Of a stretch of 64,000 nt of DNA, positions 44,332 to 57,337 are shown in pieces. Each line of letters opens with the position of its first letter. Within the stretch, counting starts at the first letter, position 1. A program made the position numbers and the translations under genes. This stretch comes from Apiotrichum sp. Y4204 (taxonomy: Eukaryota > Basidiomycota > Tremellomycetes > Trichosporonales > Trichosporonaceae). Below the pieces are notes generated by a model. It had not been told where the DNA came from, ran no database searches, and saw only the letters and a program-made list of their open reading frames with translations. The DNA is taken from NCBI GenBank assembly GCA_025531455.1, contig JAMYHL010000113.1, forward strand, positions 35,059 through 99,058. Reading direction: 5' to 3'.

Positions 44332-44336
44332 CCAGA
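44332..44336. repeat. Target-site duplication of the outer element
   Basis: CCAGA immediately before the left LTR is repeated immediately after the right LTR (57338-57342). The 5 bp length is usual for Ty3-type integrases and shows that 44337-57337 integrated as one unit. Confidence 0.95.
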
Positions 44337-44741
44337 TGTAAGGCTGGTGGCGTCTGGGGATCCCAATGGCGGCGAGAGCCCACGGAGGTAACTAGGTACA
44401 AAAGAGACTGCAGTCGGTTGTAGGAAAGTTCGTATGAGAAATGCAAGATATACATTTGCTACTTGGTATGAGCTCGAATCGCTCGTCTTATATATCGTGG
44501 TGGCCCCCCATAGTCAGATCTCGAACTCGTCGAGTTCGAGATCGAACTGTTCACCCCGCATCGCTTCTTCTACTTAACCGACGCCGAAGGTGGAGCGTTC
44601 CTTCACGGATGGTCCGACGAGGGCATCGGCACGCGTGGAGTTCGAGAACGGACGTATCGCTTTCGACCGATGCCTGTGGAGTCCCCACGGGGCTCGGTGA
44701 TCTTCGGCGCGTCCTGTTTGTTTGTCTTGCAGGGCATGACA
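44337..44741 (-). repeat. 3' LTR of outer element
   Basis: 405 bp, TGTAAGG...GCATGACA on the plus strand. It contains a 27 bp near-perfect palindrome (44517-44543: 13 bp arms around one T). The copy at 56933-57337 differs by T/C at the equivalent of 44469 and by G/A inside the palindrome. Confidence 0.95.
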
Positions 44742-44754
44742 TCCTCCCGTCTCT
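44742..44754 (-). other. Polypurine tract of outer element
   Basis: On the minus strand the 13 bases before the 3' LTR read AGAGACGGGAGGA, a purine-rich run in the expected position for plus-strand primer formation. Confidence 0.6.
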
Positions 44755-45043
44755 AGAGGAGAGATCGAGGACGAAGAAGGGTGGTCGTGTGTGGATGCGG
44801 ATGGTGGATAACTCGTCGTGCAGATCGAGGGGCGCACATGGCAATAGCTTGGCGAGGATCCATGACGGTGGGGCGTGTGTGCAGTTCGTTGATGATGTGA
44901 GGATGGATGATGCGAGGGCTGAGGGGGACGTCGTGGTGAGGAGACAATGCGCGGGCGTGTGTGTCGGGCTCACGATACTTAACCTAGGTTCACACGATCT
45001 TTCTCTTGTTGTTGCAACATCCTTCTCGACAACTCCTTTGATC

Positions 45044-45914
45044 ATGGTTCGTTCCAAGAATTATCGTAACGTGAATTCGTTCATTCCTGCGGCCGGCTCG
45101 GTCGGCCTCTCGGCTCTTCAGGCGCGCTTTAAAAAGGCGCAGAAGAACACAAAGTCGGCCTCGGCGCGCAAGAATCTTCGCGCTTACTCGGACGTCCTCA
45201 AGGCGCATGGTGTCGTGGTTCGTGGTGTCGCGGGTGAGTCCGTTTTTGAACTGGGTGGTGGTCCTAACGAGGTAGAAGCAGATCGGTGCGCTCATTGCAC
45301 CTCTCTTAAAAAGAATTGCTACGGGCCGATGGAGAAGAAGAATAACCAATGGAAACCAGTTAACGGGTACGTACAGTTAGGGTCGAGTAGCTGACGTTAT
45401 AGTTGTCTTCGCTGCGTGGTGGATCATCGTGGTTGTTCGCTTCGCGTGGCCGGAGCGCTGCGTGCTCGCACGCGCATTATTATTCCGGTCGAGAAGCGCA
45501 AGGAGTTCATTCGGCCCGTGGTTCTTGCCGAGCGTGATGCTCGCAACCACGACATCGAGTTGCCGGTCGCCACTCAGGAGGCGCTGCGCCACGTCTTGAA
45601 GGTGGGAAGGTCGTGCTTGTGGTTACTGATTGTAGACGGTGCTGACTTGCGACGACCGGAACCGCGCATTCGAGCTCGAGCTCCCACCGCGCCCGGTCGT
45701 TCACGACATCGACTTTGGGGAGGCTGTGCAACTCGTTCGTCAGTGGGTGAACGAGTCGGACACGGCGCTTGCCGCGGCGATCGCCGCGCGTGCCCGTCGC
45801 GAGCGTGAGCACGAGGAGATCGAGGGTGGTGTTGCCGCCGGCGAAGCTGCGTTCGCCTTCGAGGTGGACGAGATGGAAGTGTTGGAGGGTGAGCAGGTCG
45901 AGGGCGAGGACTGA
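45044..45914 (+). CDS. Antisense zinc-cluster (Zn2Cys6-like) protein gene of the outer element
   Basis: 250 aa from four exons (45044-45233, 45282-45366, 45403-45601, 45636-45914), with introns of 48, 36 and 34 nt; the first has a CCTAAC branch site. It lies within the retrotransposon, on the strand opposite gag-pol, between the 3' LTR and the pol end, convergent with pol (131 bp apart). A basic N-terminus (RFKKAQKNTKSASARKNLR) is followed at residues ~66-106 by CAHCTSLKKNC, a ~17-residue loop, then CLRCVVDHRGC. This is the C-x2-C-x6-C ... C-x2-C-x6-C spacing of GAL4-type binuclear clusters with a longer loop. The C-terminal ~60 residues are acidic (EVDEMEVLEGEQVEGED). Regular splicing and intact frame argue for a real gene. 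DNA binding is inferred, and there is no evidence for what it regulates. Confidence 0.85.
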
Positions 45915-46045
45915 GGAGGTGGTGTTTGGGGTTTGTGTATAGTTATTGATATTATATTATGCGTGGTATGAATGTGTGTTGTGCTTCTGCGAGTGTTTGT
46001 GTATCACAGTCGAACTGAGGGTGGTGGTTACGTCATTTCTCCTGC

Positions 46046-46252
46046 TCAACTCGGAATTTTGAAAGTTCGAGAACGGAGTCGGGTTTCCGGTTGAGGGGTT
46101 TGGTTTGCTCCCGTTTGGGCTCTGTTCCATTCCTCCTCGGATATCAATTGGTAACCCTTCCAACCCTTGGGTTTCGTGGTTTGTTTTGGCTTTTTCGTTT
46201 GGGGGGTAAAGTTGTCGAGTAATTCTTTCCATTCGTTCTTGTATCGGGCCAT
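46046..46252 (-). pseudogene. Outer element chromodomain 3' half, severed
   Basis: 68 codons ending in a stop: the second half of the outer element's chromodomain (helix YKNEWKELLDNF) plus a basic tail. The first half (KVRWSTDEVTWETEETM) is 8.2 kb away at ~54500. The duplicated CATGG includes the ATG codon shared by both halves, so the two join exactly if the inner element is removed. Confidence 0.95.
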
Positions 46253-46254
46253 GG
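46250..46254. repeat. Target-site duplication of the inner element
   Basis: CATGG directly before the inner left LTR is repeated at 54497-54501 directly after the inner right LTR. It splits a continuous chromodomain frame of the outer element. Confidence 0.95.
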
Positions 46255-46597
46255 TGTGAGCGCCGTGCTCTAGACGGGAGCAAACGGAGGCGACTCGCTC
46301 TGAGCGGGGCGGACAGGGATGAATCCGGACGGTGTCGGACGGGTTCGGACAAGATCAGTGCAAGACAATGCAGATATCGAGATCGATGCCGGTCTCGTCT
46401 ATAGAAGGGGACCTATATATATTACAGACGGGGCCGGCCGGTCTCGGACGAAATCGAACGGAGTCGGAGCGTCGGAGCCTTGGCGCGGAGTACGGCCGAG
46501 CCGACGGTGTGGCCGTAAGCGGAGACGGTGCGGTCACGTGACGCGTCGGTTGGGCTCGCACGTGATCGGGCGAGTCAGGACGGCGCGGGCCGTGACA
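46255..46597 (-). repeat. 3' LTR of inner element
   Basis: 343 bp, identical base for base to 54154-54496 by my alignment. It contains three CGGAC repeats exactly 10 bp apart (46325-46350), a second CGG-rich patch (about 46434-46478), and two CACGTG palindromes (46535-46540, 46559-46564). Confidence 0.97.
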
Positions 46598-46610
46598 GGC
46601 TCCCCCCCCA
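46598..46610 (-). other. Polypurine tract of inner element
   Basis: On the minus strand, TGGGGGGGGAGCC abuts the 3' LTR. The run of eight G plus AG is a typical polypurine tract in the expected place. Confidence 0.75.
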
Positions 46611-47934
46611 AGACACGCGCGTGGGCGTCGCGTGAGAGGCGGAGGAGAGGCGAACTCCGGCGGGCGCGCGCGTGTGGCAACATGTAAGGCCGTTTAAGAG
46701 TGGACCGCACTCGTTCCGAGGTTAACCCGCGGATATCCGAGGATAACGGCAGGATAACCTAGGAGGGGCGTTAGGCTACCCTCGGTGATGAGGACTCCTA
46801 ACCGGACACAACTGAAAGGATGCTAGAAGCGTGCAGAAAGCAAGATGCTACGGAGTACAAGGAACAGAACAGGAGTACGAGTATGAGAGATACAAGTAGT
46901 CTGAATTCTTTGGGGATAACCTCAAGAGACGGTCGTGCTTAAGTGTCGTTCTCTAGTGGTTATCCTCTGCGCATCCATCCTACCTAGACGGAGACGTCGC
47001 TCGGAGGTCCGGTGACCTGTAGAAGCAGCTGACCTCGCTTAGCGCAGCGGCGTCGTTACCCGTATCGCCGAGAGTGGCGGAGACGGTGAGACTTGGGGGA
47101 GTCGGAAGTTAATCGTTGGTTAACCTGAGTTATCCAAGGATAACCTCGTGGAACCCATGTGTATCCGGTCGTGTGTGCGTAATGTGGTGTGCCGGAATGT
47201 AAGGGTCTTACACAACACCTCGGTCACGTGACGGCCGCGTTACGTCAGGAGCGACCGTGGTCGGACGTCGGCGAGCGGTCACGTGATGTCGAGGCCGTCG
47301 AGTGCAAGGGGTGGCCGTCGAGCGAGCTGGCAAGAGAAGCGTCGGTCCAGTCGATCTTGTTGTTCAACATCTTCTCATACACCCTCCCTGTCGACTTCGG
47401 CCTCGCCGTTCGCTCGACAGCGTGCACATCCGTCGTTTTTACGGCAAATGTGAGTACTTCCGATTGCGTCGGCCGGGGAGGAACGCGCTCGCCTGCAATG
47501 GCCCGCGCGGCGGCGGATGCGGCCGTCGTCGTCGGCGGCGGCGTCCTGCAGGGGCGGGAGTTGTCTGGTTGCATGGCGCCTGCGTCGAGCAGGGGCAGAG
47601 TGCGGCGGCATGCGCTCCCGGTCGGCCTCGGTCGAGAGCAGCCGGTGGCGGCGCCGTCGGCGTGGATGTTGTCGGTGGCGAGAGCGGCGCTGGCGGCGGC
47701 AGTGAGCTTGCGCTCGGCGAGCAGGATGGCGTGAGAACATTCACAAGGGTGTGTGTGTGTGTCCGCGGATCGTGTGTGACGGGCGCAGTGTCGGTTGGTG
47801 GGGAGGGTGTGGCAGTGCCACACTCGAGCTAACAGGACCAGTTTTTTTCAATTAACAACAACAATATGGTCGGTCATGGACGGCGGCGGGCTGCAACGGG
47901 CGGTGACGGGAACGCTGATGGTTAGGCGGCTGTA
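46611..47934 (+). promoter_or_regulatory. Putative control region of the inner antisense gene
   Basis: 1.3 kb between the 3' LTR and the antisense gene. It holds six copies of GGATAAC or its complement (46741, 46752, 46914, 46959, 47129, 47138), two of them forming the palindrome GTTATCCAAGGATAAC at 47129-47144. It also has two GGTCACGTGA sites (47223 and 47278) matching a site in the LTR. Frames at 47189-47734 (+), 47302-47832 (+) and 47245-47823 (-) overlap here; none has a motif or consistent composition, so I do not call them, though an upstream exon of the antisense gene could be hidden. Confidence 0.4.
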
Positions 47935-49279
47935 ATGCCCTTCGGCGGCGCGGGTGGCGGCGGACTCCCTCCACCGGGACCGCCCGGTGGCGGCCCACCT
48001 TGGCCGCCATGCCTCGCGGACCTGGTACGCGGGTACTCGGTCCGCAAGAAGAAGCGGAAGCAGGGGAAGAAGCGGCCCGAGGGTGAGTGATCGGCTAGGA
48101 GCGGGGTCGTGCGGAGTCGGCTAGCGGCGGCCGGGGCCGTTTGGGATGGGGTGCTAACCGATAGGCTTCCGTGACGATGGCGAGTGGGCCGCAGCGTGCG
48201 GCGTGCAGGTCGTGCCGGCCTGCCAGAAGTGTGAGGAGGGCCAGTGCTTCATGCTGGTCGACAGGGCGAACTGTGGCCGGTGTATCGTGACGAAGCAGCC
48301 GTGCTCATACAATTTGGGCACGTTTGCGACCGACCACGATCGCCTGGTGCAGGCCGGGTTGTTGGAACCGCCGCCTTTGACGACGGCGATCTACAGCCCG
48401 GACCCTGTGCCAGCTCCGGGAGTCGGTGGTGCCGCGGGCGTCGGTGGTGGGGCTGGTCCTGTGGCGGCCAGGGCCGGCCCTGTGCCCGGTACTGCGGAGT
48501 ACTGGGCGCAATACGCCATGTACGCGGCGGCGGCGGCGGCAGTTGGGGTGCCTCCCGTGGCGCCTCAGATGGGACCTCCCGCGGTGCCCGGGGCGATGGC
48601 GGGCGGGTTCGGTCCGATGGGGGTGGCGCCTCCCGTGGCGCCGGGGTTCTTTGGGGCGCAGATCGTGCGGCCGCCCGTGGCCCCGCCCGCACAGGCTCCG
48701 CAGGCGCCTGTAGCGCCGCCTGCGCGTCCGCCGGCGCGACCGCCTGCCCCACCGCCCATCCGGCCTCCTGCGGCCGGTGGCGGTCAGGACGGTCCCGGCG
48801 GGCCGATGCGTCGAGGTCGCGCCACGCTCCAAGAGGAGCGGAATAGGGCGAATACGGCCGAGGCGAATCTGCGCGCGGCGCAGAGGCAGCTGCGGGAGGG
48901 GGCCGTGCGGGCCCAGGAGAGCCACGCCGCAGCCGAGCGGAATCTCGCGCGCGTGCACGGGTACGCGCAGCGGCTGTACGAGCGGCTGGCGAGTGGCGCG
49001 GGCCCTGGCGTGAACGATGGGGGCCGTACGGCCCGCGACGAAATCGGCGACTTTGCGGACGCGTTTGAGCAGGTCGCGGACGGTACCGACCGTCTCCGCG
49101 CAGCTGCGGACCCCGCGGTCGCCACGGAAGGGTGGCTGCAGCACCGCCGTGATGTGCGGCGGCAGCGGCGCGAGGAGTGGGAGGACCGGGACCGTCGGTC
49201 TGGCCGGCCGAATCGGCCCGGTCGCGGGGGACATGGTGAGGGAGGGTCCGCGCCCGGCGGGTCGGGGGGCGCGGCGTAG
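47935..49279 (+). CDS. Antisense zinc-cluster (Zn2Cys6-like) protein gene of the inner element
   Basis: 420 aa from exons 47935-48082 and 48165-49279; the 82 nt intron has GTGAGT, a GCTAAC branch site and a TAG acceptor and keeps frame. It lies inside the inner retrotransposon, opposite in strand to gag-pol and convergent with pol (164 bp apart). Features in order: Gly/Pro-rich start, basic RKKKRKQGKKRP (nuclear-localisation-like, residues ~39-50), cysteine cluster CQKCEEGQC-x8-CGRCIVTKQPC (residues ~68-95), a long Ala/Pro/Gly-rich linker, a predicted coiled coil (LQEERNRANTAEANLRAAQ onward) at ~280-340, and an Arg/Gly-rich tail. Cluster plus coiled coil resembles fungal Zn2Cys6 regulators. 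The first C-x-C gap is x4 instead of x6, so zinc binding as a true binuclear cluster is inferred. The start codon is the least certain point. Confidence 0.85.
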
Positions 49280-49290
49280 GTGTGGTTTTG

Positions 49291-49373
49291 GGCGACGACG
49301 GCCCGTAACGGTCGGGGTGGGCGGGGGTGATCAGTAGATAGGCGACGACGGCCTCGAACGGTCGGGGAGGGCA
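49291..49373. repeat. Pair of ~33 bp direct repeats between the convergent gene ends
   Basis: GGCGACGACGGCC followed by AACGGTCGGGG occurs at 49291-49323 and 49341-49373, 50 bp apart with a few mismatches. It lies in the spacer where the antisense gene and pol end, possibly in 3' processing sequence. Confidence 0.65.
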
Positions 49374-49443
49374 GGGCACATCTGGGTCATATAATATATA
49401 TAGCATCGCATGTATGGCTGGGTGTCGTCGTAGTCGAGCGGTT

Positions 49444-52400
49444 TCACTCGGCGTCGGACGGAGTCGGACGGTCGGGGTAGCGGTCGTGGAACTCGGCGAC
49501 GAGGTCGGCGGAGTTCGCGAGGGCCGAGGCCGGTTCGTAGGTCGGGGCGTCATACCCTTTCCACTTGACCTTGTAGCGGAGCGGCTCGGCGTAACGGCGG
49601 TCGATGCGTGAGTCGAGGACGGTCTCCACTTCCCATTCCTCGGCGCCGTCGACTTCGATCGGCGGAGGTGGGGGCGCGACGCGGCCGTCGAATTCGTTTG
49701 GTATCGCCGGCTTCAAGACGGAGACGTTGAAGACGTTGTGGATCGGGATCGACCGAGGCAGGTCGATCCTGTACGCATTCGGGTTAATTCGGTCGAGGAC
49801 GGGGAAAGGGCCGATAAACTTCTCCGAGAGCTTCTTGATCGGTCGACGGAGTTTAATGTTCTCGGTGTCGACGTAAACCAAGTCGCCTCGGTCGAGTTCG
49901 GTCGGCGCCGAGCGGTGGCGATCGTAGAAGCGCGCCTGCGCCTCCTTGACCTCCGCAAGTCGGTTCTTCAGGTAGGAGTAGACTTCAGACATGCGGGAGG
50001 TGACGGTCTCGGCGGTTGGCTCGCGGTAACGGGCCGGTTCGGTCGGAGTCGGTTCGCTGGGGCCACGCGGCTCGTAGCCGCGGGTGGCGACGAACGGGCT
50101 CACGCCGGTTGACGCGTGCTCGGACGTGTTGTACGCGAATTCCGCGAGGGGGAGCCAGTCGGCCCAGTCATCTTGCTGGTAATTACAGTACATGCGCAAG
50201 TACTGTTCGAGCCATTGGTTGACGATCTCGGTCTGGCCGTCCGTCTGCGGGTGATACCCGGAGGAGTAGGCCGTCGTCGTGCGAAGTCGCTCGTTAAGGG
50301 CTCGCCAGAAGGACGAGATGAACTGAGGGCCGCGGTCGGAGATGATGCGAGAGGGGATGCCGTGCTGCGAGATGACGCGGCGGACTACGCGTTCGGCGAG
50401 ATCAAGCGCGTCGGTAGTCTTGAAGCACGGTTCAAAAACGGCAGACTTCGTGAGAGTATCCACGATGACGAGGATGCAGTCGAAGCCGTACGAAAGCGGA
50501 AGAGGGCCCACGAAATCCATTGATATCGTGGACCAGGGTTTGGATGGGATTGGGAGGGGCCGCAAGAAACCGGGCGGCTTCGTGCGACGGTGTTTGCCTC
50601 GTGCGCAAGTAGGGCAAGAGGCGACGAAGGAGGTGACGGCGGCTTTGACGCCTGGCCAGTAGTAATGGCGAGTGACAAGCCGGTACGTCTTCTGTCGGCC
50701 GGGATGGCCCGCGAGCGGTTCGTCATGGCAGGACTGGATAATGCTCAGGCGGAGCCGTTCGGCGTCGGGAACGAAGAGAAGGTTTTTCCAACGGACAAGG
50801 TCGTCCGCGTCGAGGTGGTAGTGTTTCTCGCCGGGGCCGCGTGAGTCGGTGCGAATGCGGTCGGCGAGGGTCGAGCAGCCGGTGTCGGCTTTCTGCGCGA
50901 TGCGGACTGCTTCGGTTACGGATGGGGCAAAGGAGAAAAGGGCACCCAAGGTGACGGGGCCAAGGGGTGCCAGTGGGGGCGGGGAAACCCGCGACGGGTC
51001 GGAGTCGGCCGTCGGCGGTCTTGGTGGATCTTCGTAGTCGGCACGACGGGAGAGCGCGTCCGGCTTCGTGCTGTTGCGGCCGGGACGATACTCGATGATG
51101 TAGTCGAACCTTTGGAAGTCTTCCATCCATCGCGCCTGTTGGCCGTCGAGGTCGCGCTTCTTGTCGAACCATACCAAGGGCTGGTGGTCCGTCAAGATCC
51201 GGATTGTAGACGGTAAGCCTTCCAGGTACGCGCGCCAGTGCTTCAGCGCCGTTATAATCGCGAAGAGTTCCTTTTTGTAGACGGTGTAGTTAATCTCGGC
51301 GGCGGTGAACTTGTGCGAGAAGAAGGCGATCGGATGCCATCCGTCGTCGAAGCGCTGCGAGAGGATGGCGCCCATGGCGAACCCGGACGCGTCGGTCTCG
51401 ACCAGCGTCGGCCGAGACTGATCGAAGTGTCGGAGGATGTCGGCCGTCTCGAACGCCGAGCGAAGGCGGTCGAAAGCGGCCTGTGTCTCTGCCGTCCACT
51501 TGAAGGGAGTGTCCTTGCGCGTGAGGTGCGTAAGGGGGACGGTGACGGCGGAGTAGTTCGGGATGAATTGACGATAGAAGTTGGTGAAGCCGAGAAAGGA
51601 CTGCACTTGTTTGACCGTAGTCGGTGTCGGCCAGTCTCGGATGGAGTCGACCTTTGACGGGTCCATGCGGACGCCGTCGGCGGAGACGACGAAGCCCAAG
51701 AACTCGACGGAGGTGGAGTAGAATTCGCACTTGTCTGGCCGCGCGTAGAGCTGGCGCTCGCGGAGTCGGTCGAGAACGGCCGCAATGTGCCGGCCGTGCG
51801 CGGCGCGGTCCGGGGAGTAGATGAGGATGTCGTCGAGGTAGACGATGACGAACTTGTCTACCATGTCCGAGAATACGGAGTTAACCAGCGCTTGGAATGT
51901 CGCGGGTGCGTTCGTGAGGCCGAACGGCATCGCGCGATACTGGTAGAGACCGTACCGGGTGCGGAAGGCGGTCTTCCACTCGTCGCCGGCCGCGATGCGA
52001 ATTTGGTTGTACGCGTTGCGGAGATCGATCTTTGAGAAGAAGCGGCCCGAGCCGAGCCGATCGATCAGTTCCGGGATGAGTGGCAGAGGGTAACGGTTTT
52101 TGACGGTGATCTTGTTCAAGCCGCGGTAGTCGACGCAGAGTCGCAGCGAGCCGTCCTTTTTCTTGACGAATAGGATGGGGGCGGCCGCCGGCGACTCGGA
52201 CTGCTCGATCGTGCCCGCCTGGAGGGCGTCGTCTAGGTACTCGCGGAGGACCGCGAGTTCCTTCGGCGACAGCTTGTAGATGGGGCCGAAAGGAGGCGTC
52301 GTACCGGGCTCGAGGGGGATGCGGTGGTCGTACGGTTGGTGCTCGGGCAGAGCGGACGCACGCGTCTTCGAGAAGACGTCGGCGTACTGTCTGAACTCGG

Positions 52401-53076
52401 GCGGTACCGTACGAAGGGGATCGTCGTCGAGCGACGCCGCGTGGGACGGCGTGTCGAGGGCGGCCGACGGGGAGAGGGATGACACCGGGTACAGGTGTGC
52501 AAGGAGAGCAAAAGAATGCGGGGGTACGAGGGCGACGTCGGCCGACGGCGGGGCTCGCATCGATTTGACAGAGCCGGTTTGCCAGTCAAGAACGGCGTCG
52601 AACTCGCGGAGCCATTGTAGGCCGAGGACGACCTCGAACGATCCCACGGGGAAGATATAAAAGGTGAGGGTCGCGCGCAAGTGGCCGAAAGCGGCCGTCA
52701 GGCGTACAGAGTGAGTGATCTCGCCCGCTGTTGATCCGTCGAAGAGACGGACGGGTATAGGTTGGGCGAGGGGGAGAAGAGGGATGTTGTTGGTATCGGC
52801 AAAAGAGGAGTCAATAATGTTAAGCTGACAGCCGCAGTCGACGAACGCGGTCGTGCGAGTGCGGGTGAAAGCGGGCGAAGTCGGTAGGTCTAGTTCAAGG
52901 GGTATCGTGACGGACGGAGGTGCCGCAGCATTCGGCGGGGCCGAGAGTGCGGCGAGTATTACCGGACGCAGGCGGTCGCCTACGCCCGAGGGCCGTTTCC
53001 CGCTTGCGCGGAGGCGGCGACGGTCGGCGGGACCGACGCCGAGCGGGTTCGGTCGGACTTGGCCTTCTCCGGGCAG
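49444..53076 (-). CDS. Pol polyprotein of inner element (PR-RT-RNaseH-IN-chromodomain)
   Basis: Open frame of ~1,210 codons in the -1 frame relative to gag, overlapping gag by ~97 bp; probably expressed by -1 frameshifting at 53001-52995. Domains in order: retropepsin with FVDCGCQLNIID (DCG in place of DSG/DTG); reverse transcriptase with LRLCVDYRGLNKIT, MPFGLTNAPATFQ and the YLDD catalytic box; RNase H with ETDASGFAMGAIL and ILTDHQPL; integrase with an HHCC zinc finger (HDEPLAGHPG ... CPTCARG) and the D,D,E residues in MDFVG, SDRGPQF and TDGQTEIVNQ; GPF module (KFIGPFPVLDRI); C-terminal chromodomain (EEWEVETVLDSR ... YKVKWKGYDAPTYEP). No internal stop, so probably functional. Confidence 0.96.
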   Translation of the reverse strand: MPGEGQVRPNPLGVGPADRRRLRASGKRPSGVGDRLRPVILAALSAPPNAAAPPSVTIPLELDLPTSPAFTRTRTTAFVDCGCQLNIIDSSFADTNNIPLLPLAQPIPVRLFDGSTAGEITHSVRLTAAFGHLRATLTFYIFPVGSFEVVLGLQWLREFDAVLDWQTGSVKSMRAPPSADVALVPPHSFALLAHLYPVSSLSPSAALDTPSHAASLDDDPLRTVPPEFRQYADVFSKTRASALPEHQPYDHRIPLEPGTTPPFGPIYKLSPKELAVLREYLDDALQAGTIEQSESPAAAPILFVKKKDGSLRLCVDYRGLNKITVKNRYPLPLIPELIDRLGSGRFFSKIDLRNAYNQIRIAAGDEWKTAFRTRYGLYQYRAMPFGLTNAPATFQALVNSVFSDMVDKFVIVYLDDILIYSPDRAAHGRHIAAVLDRLRERQLYARPDKCEFYSTSVEFLGFVVSADGVRMDPSKVDSIRDWPTPTTVKQVQSFLGFTNFYRQFIPNYSAVTVPLTHLTRKDTPFKWTAETQAAFDRLRSAFETADILRHFDQSRPTLVETDASGFAMGAILSQRFDDGWHPIAFFSHKFTAAEINYTVYKKELFAIITALKHWRAYLEGLPSTIRILTDHQPLVWFDKKRDLDGQQARWMEDFQRFDYIIEYRPGRNSTKPDALSRRADYEDPPRPPTADSDPSRVSPPPLAPLGPVTLGALFSFAPSVTEAVRIAQKADTGCSTLADRIRTDSRGPGEKHYHLDADDLVRWKNLLFVPDAERLRLSIIQSCHDEPLAGHPGRQKTYRLVTRHYYWPGVKAAVTSFVASCPTCARGKHRRTKPPGFLRPLPIPSKPWSTISMDFVGPLPLSYGFDCILVIVDTLTKSAVFEPCFKTTDALDLAERVVRRVISQHGIPSRIISDRGPQFISSFWRALNERLRTTTAYSSGYHPQTDGQTEIVNQWLEQYLRMYCNYQQDDWADWLPLAEFAYNTSEHASTGVSPFVATRGYEPRGPSEPTPTEPARYREPTAETVTSRMSEVYSYLKNRLAEVKEAQARFYDRHRSAPTELDRGDLVYVDTENIKLRRPIKKLSEKFIGPFPVLDRINPNAYRIDLPRSIPIHNVFNVSVLKPAIPNEFDGRVAPPPPPIEVDGAEEWEVETVLDSRIDRRYAEPLRYKVKWKGYDAPTYEPASALANSADLVAEFHDRYPDRPTPSDAE

Positions 53077-54062
53077 TTATCGATGATGTGGCCCGGCTTG
53101 GCGCAGTAGCGGCAGAGGCCGCCGTCGATGCGACGTTGCATCTCGTCAGGTGGTACATGTCCGTTACGGTTGAGGCGGAAGGGTTGCGGGTTTGGCGTGG
53201 TAGAGCCGGACGACGCCGGGCGCGACGGAGCAGGCGCGGACGACGGCGCGCGTTGGTTACGGTTGCGGTTAGTGTTAGTGTTAGAAGTGTTAGGTGACGA
53301 CGCGGCCGGCGTCGGGCGGTCGCGCTCTTCTTCTTTGCGCTCGGTCTCACGTGCGGTGATGCGGTTGTCGATGGCCAGGGCCGCGCGAACGAGGTCGGTA
53401 GTGACGTCGGGGATGTCATCGCGGGCGAGTTCGTCCTTGATCTTGCCTTTCAGGCCGCGATAGTAGAGAGCGGCGACGGGCGCGGAGTCGTAGTTCCACT
53501 TGAGCTCGAGGACGTGACGCTGGAACAGCGTGGTGAACGCCGCGACCGACGCCGTCTGGTGTAGGGTGAGCAAGGCCCGTTTCGCACGGTTCGCGCGGTC
53601 CGGTTCGCCAAAGTTCCTCTCGAGTTCTTCCTTGAACAAGTCGTACCGGTAGTAGTACGGAGGGCGATCGTCGGCGGCGTAGTCGAGGAGGACGGCCCAC
53701 CAATCTTTGGCTGATCCGCTGAGGCGATCGGCGATGTAGAAGATGCGAGAGTGATCCGTCGCGTAGCGGTGCGGTTGTCCTTCAAAGACGGTTTGGCAGT
53801 CCGTGAGAAAATTGCGGAGTTTGGATCGAGTTCCGCTGAACTTCTCGGGGCCGTCTAGCTTCGGCTCGATTCGTTCGACGTGGGGCGGAGGCGGTCCGGC
53901 GGGGAGCTCTTCGAGCGCGCGGATGCGACGCAAGAGAGCCTCGTTCTCGACGCGCATGGCGCGAACGGCGTTGAGGATGTCGCCGCCGTCGGCCTGGGCT
54001 TGTTGGGGCTCAAGTGGCGGTGGCGGCGGCGAGCCATCCTGTTGGTCGACGTGATCGGCCAT
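52980..54062 (-). CDS. Gag protein of inner element
   Basis: 360 aa capsid/nucleocapsid protein starting MADHVDQQDG. A Pro/Gln-rich N-terminus and short coiled coil are followed by the capsid region (FSGTRSKLRNFLTDCQTVF, WWAVLLDYAADD, FQRHVLELKWNYDS) and a CCHC zinc knuckle CRYCAKPGHIIDNC near residue 327. The frame ends at 52980, five codons after the slippery heptamer. The leader between primer-binding site and ATG is ~75 nt. Confidence 0.95.
   Translation of the reverse strand: MADHVDQQDGSPPPPPLEPQQAQADGGDILNAVRAMRVENEALLRRIRALEELPAGPPPPHVERIEPKLDGPEKFSGTRSKLRNFLTDCQTVFEGQPHRYATDHSRIFYIADRLSGSAKDWWAVLLDYAADDRPPYYYRYDLFKEELERNFGEPDRANRAKRALLTLHQTASVAAFTTLFQRHVLELKWNYDSAPVAALYYRGLKGKIKDELARDDIPDVTTDLVRAALAIDNRITARETERKEEERDRPTPAASSPNTSNTNTNRNRNQRAPSSAPAPSRPASSGSTTPNPQPFRLNRNGHVPPDEMQRRIDGGLCRYCAKPGHIIDNCPEKAKSDRTRSASVPPTVAASAQAGNGPRA
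52995..53001 (-). promoter_or_regulatory. -1 ribosomal frameshift heptamer in gag-pol
   Basis: On the minus strand the sequence is G-GGA-AAC in the gag frame (X-XXY-YYZ), the canonical -1 slippery form. Sliding back one base gives GGG-AAA and enters the pol frame, which is open from 53076 onward; gag stops five codons later. The position inside the overlap is exactly where a gag-pol frameshift is needed. I could not fold the downstream RNA. Confidence 0.7.
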
Positions 54063-54137
54063 GATCGCTCGGGATCAAACGGTATCAGACGAAAAAGTGC
54101 GTGTCGTTATTGTCACCGGCGGTGGCGGTGGCGACAG

Positions 54138-54151
54138 ATCGATCTCGATAT
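54138..54151 (-). other. Self-complementary primer-binding site of inner element
   Basis: Plus-strand ATCGATCTCGATAT lies 2 bp inside the 5' LTR. Its exact reverse complement, ATATCGAGATCGAT, is at 54273-54286 in the LTR, beginning 34 nt downstream (minus sense) of the LTR TATA box, i.e. at the predicted RNA 5' end. This is the layout of the self-priming Tf1-type mechanism, not a tRNA site. Confidence 0.75.
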
Positions 54152-54153
54152 AC

Positions 54154-54496
54154 TGTGAGCGCCGTGCTCTAGACGGGAGCAAACGGAGGCGACTCGCTCT
54201 GAGCGGGGCGGACAGGGATGAATCCGGACGGTGTCGGACGGGTTCGGACAAGATCAGTGCAAGACAATGCAGATATCGAGATCGATGCCGGTCTCGTCTA
54301 TAGAAGGGGACCTATATATATTACAGACGGGGCCGGCCGGTCTCGGACGAAATCGAACGGAGTCGGAGCGTCGGAGCCTTGGCGCGGAGTACGGCCGAGC
54401 CGACGGTGTGGCCGTAAGCGGAGACGGTGCGGTCACGTGACGCGTCGGTTGGGCTCGCACGTGATCGGGCGAGTCAGGACGGCGCGGGCCGTGACA
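54154..54496 (-). repeat. 5' LTR of inner element
   Basis: 343 bp, identical to 46255-46597. It drives gag-pol on the minus strand through the TATA box at 54311-54320. Confidence 0.97.
54311..54320 (-). promoter_or_regulatory. TATA box in inner 5' LTR
   Basis: Minus-strand TATATATAGG. 34 nt downstream begins the 14 nt segment complementary to the primer-binding site, so the predicted transcript starts at about 54286. Confidence 0.7.
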
Positions 54497-55987
54497 CATG
54501 GTCTCTTCGGTTTCCCAAGTAACTTCGTCTGTGGACCAGCGGACTTTCCATTGTTGTTGGTCGCGTACGACCCTCTTCCCTTCCAAAAACAAGGGCGTGG
54601 GGGAATTGTCGATGATTGCGGTCTGTCTATCCGTAGACGGACTTCCATTGTATTGTTTGAGTAAGGAAACATGAAAAACGGGCCACACCCGAGAGCCCTT
54701 GGGGAGGTCGAGTTTGTACGCGACGTTGTTGATAACTTCGAGTATGGAGAAGGGTCCTGCGTAGCGATCGCTCAATTTTCGTGAAGATTGTAGCCCCTTG
54801 AGGTTCTTTACGTTAAGCAGTACGAGGTCTCCGACTTTGTATTCAACATCGCGCCTTTTTCTATTCGCGTAGTGGGTGTATTCTTCGCGGGCGGATGCCA
54901 GGGTTCCGCGCAACGTGGAGTGTAATTCTTGAAGGCGTTGAAGTCGGTCGTTGGCATCGCCGCTACCGGTGAGTGACATCGTTTCTTGTTCGTCTAAGCC
55001 CTTTCGTACTCGAACGCCATTGTTTGCTTCGAACGGCGTAAGGTTTATAGACGAGTGCACAGTAGAGTTGTAGCAGAACTCTGCGTGTGGTAACAGCGAC
55101 ATCCAGTTGTCTTGTTCGATGTTGGCGTAGCAGCGTAGATACTGTTCTAGCCATTGGTTTACGATTTCTGTTTGGCCGTCTGTTTGTGGATGGTACGAAG
55201 ACGATAAACGATGATCGGTTTGCAGATGTTTCGCGATCGTCCTCCAGTAGGCCGCGGTGAAGATAGATCCTCGGTCTGAGACGATAGTTTTCGGGAGCCC
55301 GTGTTTGCAGTAGATGTGTTCGAAGAATAACTCTGCAAATCCTTCGGTAGTTAACCTCTTCGTGGTAGGTAAAAAGTGTGCCATTTTGGTAAACCTGTCT
55401 ACGAAGACGAGGATGGCGTCCCATTCGGGTTGGTCGGGATCGACGTTGGGAAGTGGAGGTAAAGCGGTGATCATATCACAAGTAATGTGTTGCCATGGGC
55501 CATCCGCGACCGGTAGAGGTCTGAGCAGACCGGCGGGTTTTTGACGAGGGAACTTGGTCTTTTGGCAGACGAAGCATGAAGATACGTATTCGATTACGTC
55601 CTGTCGGAGTGTCGGCCACCAATATTTGGAGTTTACCGCTAGAATTGTCTTTTTCTGGCCTGGGTGTCCTGCTGATCGATGGTCGTGTAGTAGCTTCATT
55701 ATGGTAGGTCGGATGTCTTTTGGTGCATATCGTAGTTCGTCCTTGTAGTACCATCTTCGTCCTTTGGTGAGGTTGAATTTTTTGATTTCTTCTGATGTTG
55801 GTGTAACTTCGGAATTGGTGAACAGTTCGTGCTCTCCCAGATCTTCAACGGCCCACGTGGTAGCCACGGCAACGCGAACCAAATTGGAACGAATCTCGGG
55901 ATTGGTTAGTTCGAGTTCGTTGTGGCCGCGGTCGGGCCGGCGAGAAAGAGCGTCCGGGACCACATTCTGTTTTCCTGGTTTGTGATA
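54497..55987 (-). pseudogene. Outer element pol remnant (RNase H end, integrase, chromodomain start)
   Basis: The frame opens at the last residues of RNase H (YHKPGKQNVVPDALSRRPD) and continues through an intact-looking integrase: zinc finger HDHRSAGHPG ... CFVCQ, catalytic D, D, E in CDMITALPPL, SDRGSIF and TDGQTEIVNQ, and GPF module (RYAGPFSILEVI). It enters the chromodomain (QQWKVRWSTDEVTWETEETM), where the inner element cuts it. Protease, reverse transcriptase and most of RNase H are missing. As it stands, the frame reads through into LTR sequence. Its C-terminal end survives at 46046-46252. Confidence 0.95.
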
Positions 55988-56891
55988 AGTTGAGGAGCTT
56001 GTTTGCTGCTACTTCGGTCTGGTCCAGGGGTCGGAACACGTTCTTCAGTTCTTGTTTAAACAACTTCCAATCTTCAAGCCAAATTGGAGTGATTTCGGAG
56101 TTGTAGTAGGGTGCCCACCATTGTCGAGCTCCTTCACGGAATAAGGATACGGTAAACGCAATGCGGTCTTTGTCCCTCGGATACGCTTTGTGATTGAAGT
56201 CGAGATATTGACCACATTGTGCGAGGAAAGCCGGAAGGCTTTCGCCGTCGCCTTTCCATGTGTCCGGCTTCGGTAACTTTGCGTTCGACGACCGGTTCTC
56301 TTCGTTGTCGGAGTCGCTGGATTGGCCTTCGGTCCTTGTCGATTCTCTGGTTGGTTCTCGGTGTCGGTGCTCCGGGATTTCTGTTCCCCCACGGGATTGT
56401 CTGGGTTCGTTTTCCAGTTCTTCAATTCGAGCACGCAATGCTTCATTGCGGTCGATAGCTCGGTTTACGGGTATGTTCTCCGCTTGCTGATTTCGTACGA
56501 GTTGTTGTAGAAGTTGTAGTATGGCCATATTCGGGTCCCCTCCGCCTGGGGGATCCTCTCGAACTGGTTGATTCTGGGTCTGTGTGGAGCGTTGTTCGGT
56601 GGTGACGTCATTTTCGTTCTCGAAGTTTTCTAGTTCGAGATTTTGTTGAGTCCGAGAACCTTGAGCCCTTGAGGGCGTGTCGTCACGGGATCGTTCCCGT
56701 TGTTGAGTTGTCTCGTTCGTAGACGGACTCTCCCCCAAGGGGTGGAGTCTGGTTACGTTCGTGGTCGAAGTTTCTACTTCTTGAACGGGTTCATCTTGGT
56801 GGCCCTCGGTCTGATTCCTTGTCGAGGGGCGGCTCCTTGTGTTACGTGTGGGTTGATCAGGCCCCACGTTCAGAGGAGTAGGTCGAGACAT
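55988..56891 (-). pseudogene. Outer element gag, truncated by deletion
   Basis: About 300 codons of gag from MSRPTPLNVGPD: a long polar, disordered N-terminus, a coiled coil (RNEALRARIEELENE), then the capsid region (TWKGDGESLPAFLAQCGQYL, WWAPYYNSEITPIWLEDW, NKLLNL). It then breaks into the other frame at ~55988, where the sequence becomes the end of RNase H. The zinc knuckle is gone. The apparent ~45-residue tail to 55845 is out-of-frame pol. Confidence 0.9.
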
Positions 56892-56917
56892 AACGATAGA
56901 GTTATCTCCGTGGTAAG

Positions 56918-56930
56918 AGCAAATGTATAT
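56918..56930 (-). other. Self-complementary primer-binding site of outer element
   Basis: Plus-strand AGCAAATGTATAT lies 2 bp inside the 5' LTR. Its reverse complement, ATATACATTTGCT, is at 57044-57056, 34 nt downstream of the LTR TATA box in the minus sense. Same geometry as the inner element with an unrelated sequence. Confidence 0.75.
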
Positions 56931-56932
56931 GA

Positions 56933-57337
56933 TGTAAGGCTGGTGGCGTCTGGGGATCCCAATGGCGGCGAGAGCCCACGGAGGTAACTAGGTACAAAAG
57001 AGACTGCAGTCGGTTGTAGGAAAGTTCGTATGAGAAATGCAAGATATACATTTGCTACTTGGTACGAGCTCGAATCGCTCGTCTTATATATCGTGGTGGC
57101 CCCCCATAGTCAGATCTCGAACTCGTCAAGTTCGAGATCGAACTGTTCACCCCGCATCGCTTCTTCTACTTAACCGACGCCGAAGGTGGAGCGTTCCTTC
57201 ACGGATGGTCCGACGAGGGCATCGGCACGCGTGGAGTTCGAGAACGGACGTATCGCTTTCGACCGATGCCTGTGGAGTCCCCACGGGGCTCGGTGATCTT
57301 CGGCGCGTCCTGTTTGTTTGTCTTGCAGGGCATGACA
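56933..57337 (-). repeat. 5' LTR of outer element
   Basis: 405 bp partner of 44337-44741, two differences. It contains the TATA box at 57083-57090. Confidence 0.95.
57083..57090 (-). promoter_or_regulatory. TATA box in outer 5' LTR
   Basis: Minus-strand TATATAAG. The predicted RNA start, 34 nt downstream at about 57056, coincides with the start of the segment complementary to the primer-binding site. Confidence 0.7.

What the first reader, a model, noticed from the sequence alone, without database searches (positions are those of the whole stretch)
44742..49279. Two nested, unrelated-in-sequence chromoviruses each carry a spliced antisense zinc-cluster gene in the same slot
Seen: both elements have, between the pol end and the 3' LTR, a plus-strand gene with good GT-AG introns and a paired cysteine motif (outer C-x2-C-x6-C-x17-C-x2-C-x6-C; inner C-x2-C-x4-C-x8-C-x2-C-x6-C), a basic patch near it, and pol ending tail-to-tail 131-164 bp away. 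Known: extra antisense ORFs downstream of pol exist in some plant Ty3 elements, and Zn2Cys6 proteins are fungal DNA-binding regulators. Inference: this is a conserved accessory gene, perhaps a self-encoded regulator of LTR transcription, silencing escape or target choice. The shared position with little sequence similarity suggests an old trait of this lineage.
Basis: partly seen in the sequence, partly recalled or inferred. Interest (0 to 1): 0.88.

Follow-up and report, generated by a model that had tools for sequence, protein, structure and literature searches.

The report
Antisense zinc-finger gene in fungal retrotransposons
Several families of a jumping element in one fungal genome each carry an extra, spliced gene pointing backwards near their end that makes a likely zinc-binding, probably nuclear protein, and selection has kept that protein working, so it probably helps the element live in its host.

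Summary
Two nested LTR retrotransposons (outer 44335-57337, inner 46255-54496) each carry, between pol and the 3' LTR, a tail-to-tail plus-strand gene with introns and a six-cysteine motif. Outer exons: 45044-45366, 45403-45601, 45636-45914. Inner exons: 47935-48082, 48165-49279. Second copies in the same 48.9-Mb genome keep frame and splice sites; dN/dS is 0.13 and 0.22. It is not limited to these two. Of 7 Ty3 families (my grouping) whose pol-3'LTR slot could be read, 6 have a spliced antisense Cys6 gene and 1 does not. dN/dS is 0.06-0.23 in all four pairs tested. Protein similarity between families is detectable in two cases and follows the pol tree there. It looks like an old, fast-evolving accessory gene. 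In the inner pair the gene block is about 70% identical and its flanks 85-100%, which suggests cassette exchange. Membership in PF00172 (Zn2Cys6) is not met. Antisense accessory ORFs are known in plants and in Botrytis Boty; my searches of open-access papers found no spliced Cys6 version in basidiomycete elements. A nuclear accessory role is my best reading, but it is inferred: no RNA or biochemical data were available.

The parts
44335..44741 (-). outer element 3' LTR (element is on the minus strand)
   Evidence: 405 of 407 identical to 56931-57337; TSD CCAGA
56931..57337 (-). outer element 5' LTR
45044..45914 (+). outer antisense gene, 266 aa; exons 45044-45366, 45403-45601, 45636-45914 (stop included); Cys6 motif encoded across intron 1
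   Evidence: dN/dS 0.133 against the C94 copy
45367..45402 (+). outer intron 1, 36 nt, GTACGT..CTGACGTTATAG
   Evidence: GT, branch-like motif and AG kept in the C94 copy; unspliced reading meets a stop
45602..45635 (+). outer intron 2, 34 nt, GTGGGA..CTGATTGTAG
46046..46254 (-). 3' end of the outer pol; stop codon 46046-46048, cut off from the rest by the inner insertion (46250-46254 is the target site)
   Evidence: alignment with the C94 copy
54502..56008 (-). outer pol, integrase part; about 2.7 kb of pol missing near 55978-55983 relative to the C94 copy
46255..46597 (-). inner element 3' LTR
   Evidence: 343 of 343 identical to 54154-54496; TSD CATGG
54154..54496 (-). inner element 5' LTR
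46683..47212 (.). solo LTR of a third element family, TSD CAACA, inside the inner element
   Evidence: related stretches at C131, C157 and others; C171 lacks it
47935..49279 (+). inner antisense gene, 420 aa; exons 47935-48082 and 48165-49279 (stop included); basic patch, Cys6 motif, Pro/Ala-rich middle, C-terminal part that looks helical by eye
   Evidence: dN/dS 0.220 against the C171 copy
48083..48164 (+). inner coding intron, 82 nt (93 nt in C171)
47450..47925 (+). possible 5'UTR intron of the inner gene (GTGAGT at 47450; branch-like motif and AG ending at 47925)
   Evidence: signals also present in C171 (alignment); seen by eye, not tested
47415..49314 (+). block of 62-85% identity to C171 per 100 bp (mostly about 70%) inside flanks of 85-100%: candidate exchanged cassette
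49444..53076 (-). inner pol (protease, RT, RNase H, integrase, SH3_Tf2-1, chromodomain); stop codon 49444-49446
52980..54074 (-). inner gag (Ty3 capsid; CCHC knuckle by eye)

Best explanation
Each element carries a spliced accessory gene on the strand opposite gag-pol, in the pol-3'LTR slot. It encodes a six-cysteine, probably zinc-binding protein with basic, NLS-like patches and, in several families, parts that look helical or coiled-coil by eye. SHOWN by sequence: a protein-coding gene under purifying selection, present in 6 of 7 readable Ty3 families of this genome. INFERRED: a promoter just upstream of the gene drives it; the protein enters the nucleus and binds nucleic acid or chromatin of its own element, or the host machinery acting on it, to help the element's expression or integration, much as proposed for plant antisense aORFs. 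Probabilities: functional protein-coding gene about 0.95; nuclear accessory role of this kind about 0.5.
For: Intact spliced frames in second copies with dN/dS 0.064-0.230, upper bootstrap bounds 0.09-0.32, in 4 of 4 pairs tested; only in the proposed frame (outer and inner). Six of 7 readable families carry it. Every gene could be read with GT..AG introns of 34-93 nt that keep the frame (one search looked only for introns with a CTRAY motif, and one C104 intron without that exact motif was placed by eye). Densest basic stretch 4-9 K/R in 10 residues; no stretch hydrophobic enough for a membrane segment. Protein similarity tracks pol: blastp C104/C113 5e-9 and C124/outer 0.002, both sister groups in the pol tree.
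Against: No transcript, protein or zinc data. No match above threshold to any DNA-binding family. One family (C144) has only about 128 bp between pol and LTR and no such gene, so it is not required for every Ty3 element here. Most between-family comparisons of the proteins are not significant; hhalign gives 94.5% probability for C104/C113 but at most 16.2% for the other 14 family pairs. The LTRs of the inner pair barely differ while the genes differ strongly, so the LTR is not an obvious partner.
Confidence: 0.55

Rival explanations
1. The gene is an anti-silencing factor, a fast-evolving TE-encoded protein that lifts host chromatin or RNA silencing from its own family (works like plant VANC proteins; recalled).
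For: Fast divergence beside conserved pol and apparent swapping of the gene block in the inner pair fit an arms race.
Against: No comparison with VANC was made; no target motif found; no expression or methylation data.
Confidence: 0.2
2. The gene is a self-limiting or superinfection-type regulator that represses related copies.
For: Family-specific, apparently exchangeable protein sequence; few pol-bearing copies per family, 1-4 seen in capped searches.
Against: No data on transposition; low copy number has many other causes and the counts are lower bounds.
Confidence: 0.1
3. The antisense transcript, not the protein, acts (antisense RNA or dsRNA control of gag-pol).
For: Orientation; dsRNA control is discussed for plant aORFs (passages of PMC7264820).
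Against: Amino-acid-level purifying selection in 4 of 4 pairs; in the outer pair 37 amino-acid changes against at least 63 in neutral simulations.
Confidence: 0.07
4. A captured or separate host gene that happens to sit in the slot.
For: Stand-alone Cys6 genes with a similar layout exist at C145 (two in tandem) and C126 in the same genome.
Against: Same slot and orientation in 6 families; similarity follows pol in two cases. The link between the stand-alone genes and the element genes is weak: E 4e-4 with outer_C94 against the 10-kb stretch alone, E 0.12 genome-wide.
Confidence: 0.06
5. Spurious ORF from GC-rich sequence.
For: GC-rich region with long mirrored ORFs on the minus strand; 72 of 2000 neutral simulations of the outer CDS stayed open.
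Against: Only plus frame 0 is open in both copies with low dN/dS; conserved splice signals.
Confidence: 0.02

Closest known systems
Plant antisense aORF-3R (Grande gene23, RIRE2, Retand TRP28, PvRetro13)
   Same: [quoted passage not shown] kept in most copies; nuclear or DNA-binding role suggested (PMC7264820, section 5 and passages; PMC11963269, passages)
   Different: The Retand domain is TRP28 (PF04195), not a Cys6 motif, and was not hit by the outer, inner, C124, C172 or C113 protein nor by the C104 C-terminal part. Plants, not basidiomycetes. The word 'intron' occurs in neither main text, though PMC7264820 asks readers to look for antisense and spliced transcripts
Boty brtn of Botrytis cinerea
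   Same: Fungal Ty3 element with an additional antisense gene (named in PMC7264820, PMC8365987 and PMC4227169)
   Different: Original paper (Zhao 2011) not seen; brtn sequence, introns and cysteines not compared; ascomycete
Additional ORFs in fungal Gypsy elements (Novikova et al. 2010, PMC2864245)
   Same: Additional ORF of unknown function in some of the elements drawn (Figure 3 legend; section 5 read)
   Different: Neither 'antisense' nor 'zinc' occurs in the main text; figures and supplements not seen
Fungal Zn2Cys6 cluster, PF00172
   Same: Six cysteines as two C-x2-C-xn-C arms
   Different: Spacing often outside the family range (recalled), basic recognition residues mostly absent, Pfam scores below cut-off

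Membership tests
Antisense accessory ORF (aORF-3R) of LTR retrotransposons | Lies between pol and 3' LTR, opposite to gag-pol | tested here: met
   Outer, inner, C124, C104, C172, C113; not C144. LTR borders of C104 and C113 rest on partial matches
Antisense accessory ORF (aORF-3R) of LTR retrotransposons | Kept in copies of a family with conserved protein | tested here: met
   dN/dS 0.064-0.230 in four pairs; one further copy (C93) is interrupted by an inserted LTR
Antisense accessory ORF (aORF-3R) of LTR retrotransposons | Transcribed in antisense | not testable with these tools
   No RNA data; the only database relative found reads through intron 1
Zn2Cys6 cluster PF00172 | Match above the Pfam gathering score | tested here: not met
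   No PF00172 hit for the full outer and inner proteins; 4 of 10 Cys cores hit it sub-threshold, best E 0.023; best piece 16.2 bits against a cut-off of 21
Zn2Cys6 cluster PF00172 | C-x2-C-x6-C-x5-12-C-x2-C-x6-8-C spacing (recalled) | tested here: not met
   Outer linker x16, inner first arm x4, C124 linker x37, C172 last arm x9; only C104 and C113 fit
Zn2Cys6 cluster PF00172 | Several basic residues between the 2nd and 3rd cysteines (recalled) | tested here: not met
   Arms such as CQKCEEGQC, CGLCMSQSIVC, CRTCERSAVIC; only the outer arm has two basic residues there
Zn2Cys6 cluster PF00172 | Binds two zinc ions and DNA | not testable with these tools
   No assay; structure prediction not accepted, machine busy
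Chromovirus (Ty3 with chromodomain) | Chromodomain at the C-terminus of pol | tested here: inconclusive
   Inner: PF00385 E 9.3e-8. Outer-family polyprotein: none at E<0.001, though SH3_Tf2-1 is present
env-like gene | Membrane-spanning segments | tested here: not met
   Maximum 19-residue hydropathy 0.82-1.51 in ten proteins
Boty brtn | Sequence relation to brtn | not tested
   brtn sequence not obtained

The most novel reading that the evidence does not exclude
The antisense Cys6 gene is an exchangeable specificity cassette of a lineage of fungal Ty3 elements: recombination swaps whole genes between elements that otherwise share LTR and pol, and the host genome carries stand-alone relatives of the gene (C145 tandem pair, C126). 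This would make it a TE-host conflict gene family with element-borne and host-borne versions, unlike known antisense aORFs.
Probability: 0.2. Interest if true: 0.8.

Novelty: new variant of a known kind. Interest (0 to 1): 0.6.

Why it matters
The function of antisense accessory genes in LTR retrotransposons is described as unknown in the plant papers read here in part. A small fungal genome with six families carrying a selected, spliced version built around one motif would give a simple place to test what such genes do. If it is widespread, TE annotation of these fungi probably misses a gene, or counts it as a host gene.

Tried and rejected
Idea rejected: a circularly permuted Zn2Cys6 cluster. 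Of 13 PDB sequences at E up to 10 (none significant), the two best, both PUT3 (E 0.37 and 0.65), aligned with the halves swapped; Mdm2 RING chains were also in the list. But separate half-motif scans put the first half of C104 and the second halves of C124 and C150 all on the second half of PF00172, and 17 of 20 half pieces gave no PF00172 hit, so the order is not consistent. Idea rejected: env-like gene. Not settled: a shared upstream motif CTTGTTGTT(G)CAACAT in outer and inner (2 plus-strand matches in the window); it is altered in the outer C94 copy and in C171, and absent from the upstream stretches of C172, C113 and C104.

Searches that gave nothing: the protein database search with the outer gene found one relative, a fragment that reads through intron 1 (only the 8000 best candidates were scored), and none at E<=1 for the C172 exon or for C124/C150. 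A viral-contig scan with the inner pol end found none. Structure prediction was never accepted because the machine was busy. Paper searches returned no paper; others returned listings, of which I read passages or sections of five papers (PMC7264820, PMC11963269, PMC2864245, PMC8365987, PMC4227169).

Not done: the slots of C82 and C157 run off contigs; C90 and C132 have very distant pol and were not examined for the gene. No census in other fungi was possible with these collections.
Full report
Observation. The window holds a nest of three LTR insertions. The outer element has LTRs 44335-44741 and 56931-57337 with TSD CCAGA; the inner has LTRs 46255-46597 and 54154-54496 with TSD CATGG. A solo LTR of a third family (46683-47212, TSD CAACA) lies inside the inner one; the C171 copy lacks it. 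Both elements read gag-pol on the minus strand. In each, a plus-strand gene lies tail-to-tail with pol, before the 3' LTR. The outer gene has exons 45044-45366, 45403-45601 and 45636-45914 and encodes 266 aa. The inner gene has exons 47935-48082 and 48165-49279 and encodes 420 aa.

Is it a gene? The genome of the window (G000, 48.9 Mb, 182 contigs) holds other copies: C94 and a fragment at C136 for the outer family, C171 for the inner. The C94 copy has no indel across the outer gene and keeps both introns' GT, branch-like motif and AG while the intron letters vary. Codon comparison (Nei-Gojobori, bootstrap 95% range) gives dN/dS 0.133 [0.085-0.198] for outer/C94, 0.220 [0.163-0.292] for inner/C171, 0.230 [0.162-0.321] for C124/C150 and 0.064 [0.041-0.091] for C172/C113a (335 codons; C113a is cut by the end of the stretch held). 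The matching pol parts give 0.057, 0.077, 0.056 and 0.014. Within the outer gene the exons give 0.11, 0.06 and 0.29. For the outer CDS and the inner exon 2, plus frame 0 is the only one of six frames open in both copies; each other frame has dN/dS above 1 or several stops. In the outer pair 37 codons change amino acid against 63 or more in 2000 neutral simulations; 72 of those 2000 stayed open, so openness alone is weaker evidence.

How widespread? Searches with PF24626 and PF17919 gave 14 and 15 places (counts are lower bounds). Grouped by pol similarity, 7 families have a readable pol-3'LTR slot. Six have a spliced antisense gene with six cysteines: outer (C17, C94, part at C136), inner (C17, C171), C124/C150, C104, C172 (also a copy at the start of C113, whose pol is cut by the contig end, and C93, interrupted by an inserted LTR), and C113 at 425 kb. 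One, C144 with C104:1, has only about 128 bp between pol and LTR and no gene. LTR borders for C104 and C113 rest on partial matches limited by what I fetched or by the contig end; for C150 only the 3' LTR side was compared. C82 and C157 run off contigs; C90 and C132 have very distant pol and were not examined. My first motif scan of 10 loci (ORFs of 90 aa or more, linker up to 30) hit 4 of them, each time an ORF antisense to and downstream of pol; it missed C124 and C150, whose linker is 37 residues, found by reading the translation. The introns I chose are 34-93 nt. One search listed only introns with a CTRAY motif and in some genes offered alternatives; I took the one that keeps the frame. 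One C104 intron without that exact motif was placed by eye.

Relations. The pol tree pairs the outer family with C124/C150 (support 97/95) and C104 with C113 (100/100); 4 of its 10 inner branches are open. The antisense proteins show the same pairs: blastp C104/C113 5e-9, C124/outer 0.002; the next best between families is C113/inner_C171 at 0.025. Profile comparison by hhalign gives 94.5% probability for C104/C113 and at most 16.2% for the other 14 family pairs. The simplest reading is one old gene that evolves much faster than pol, but for the remaining families common descent rests on slot, orientation, splicing and motif. All six proteins have 7-8 cysteines, six of them in the motif; shuffles reproduced the (after-the-fact) pattern 0 of 20000 times in five proteins and 1 of 20000 in C113.

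Mosaic. In the inner pair the block 47415-49314 is 62-85% identical per 100 bp, while LTR, leader, the stretch beyond the gene and pol are 85-100%. dS is 1.06 in the gene and 0.13 in pol. For C124/C150 it is 0.72 against 0.27, and for C172/C113a 1.19 [0.93-1.61] against 0.55 [0.33-0.87] (116 pol codons only). The outer pair shows no such gap: 0.56 against 0.70. I read the inner pair as a recombined cassette, because the non-coding stretch beyond the gene is more alike than the gene itself; locally raised mutation cannot be fully excluded.

Stand-alone relatives. A weak genome-wide hit (E 0.12) led to C145, which has two tandem genes with C-x2-C-x5-C-x16-C-x2-C-x6-C, a basic patch and a tail that looks coiled-coil by eye. 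No pol was found in the 10 kb read. C126 has a similar gene; only 1.2 kb was read there. Their exon-wise dN/dS is 0.23-0.66. The link to the element genes is weak (tblastn E 4e-4 with outer_C94 against that 10-kb stretch alone). C145 and C126 share DNA at 84% beside and 78% across the gene, so they look like corresponding chromosomal places.

What it is. No Pfam family is met. PF00172 is the nearest, below its cut-off, and spacing and recognition residues mostly do not fit, so I do not file it there. Basic clusters and the lack of membrane segments suggest a soluble, probably nuclear protein. gag already has a CCHC knuckle (outer family by Pfam; inner by eye), so the gene need not replace nucleocapsid. 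A role at the element's DNA, RNA or chromatin is inference.

Known context. [quoted passage not shown] passages of PMC11963269; passages of PMC8365987 and PMC4227169; the original Boty paper not seen). A fungal survey draws an additional ORF of unknown function (PMC2864245, passages and section 5). I found no description of a spliced Cys6 antisense gene in basidiomycete elements in searches of an open-access library; subscription papers were not searched.

Noticed in passing
window 46683-47212: Solo LTR (530 bp, TSD CAACA) of another family inside the inner element; two related stretches lie 4.3 kb apart at C131, and others lie at or near contig ends.
   Followed up: partly
window 55978-55983: The outer pol lacks about 2.7 kb present in the C94 copy, with a few bases of shared sequence at the junction.
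   Followed up: partly
L042 1456-2815 (C145:96641-98000) and L088 (C126): Stand-alone spliced Cys6 genes with a basic patch and a coiled-coil-like tail; tandem in C145, no pol in the 10 kb read there.
   Followed up: partly
L042 771-1187: About 417-bp repeat also found wholly or in part at C142, C7, C120, C111, C110 and C97, not matched at C126; looks like a solo LTR.
   Followed up: no
L053 2608-3051 (C93): A C144-family LTR sits inside the antisense gene of a C172-family element.
   Followed up: no
window 47357-47371 and 45006-45021: Shared TTGTTGTT(G)CAACATC motif upstream of both antisense genes; not found upstream of C172, C113 or C104.
   Followed up: partly
G000 C145/C126: Corresponding places at 78-84% DNA identity suggest the genome may hold two diverged sets of chromosomes.
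   Followed up: no
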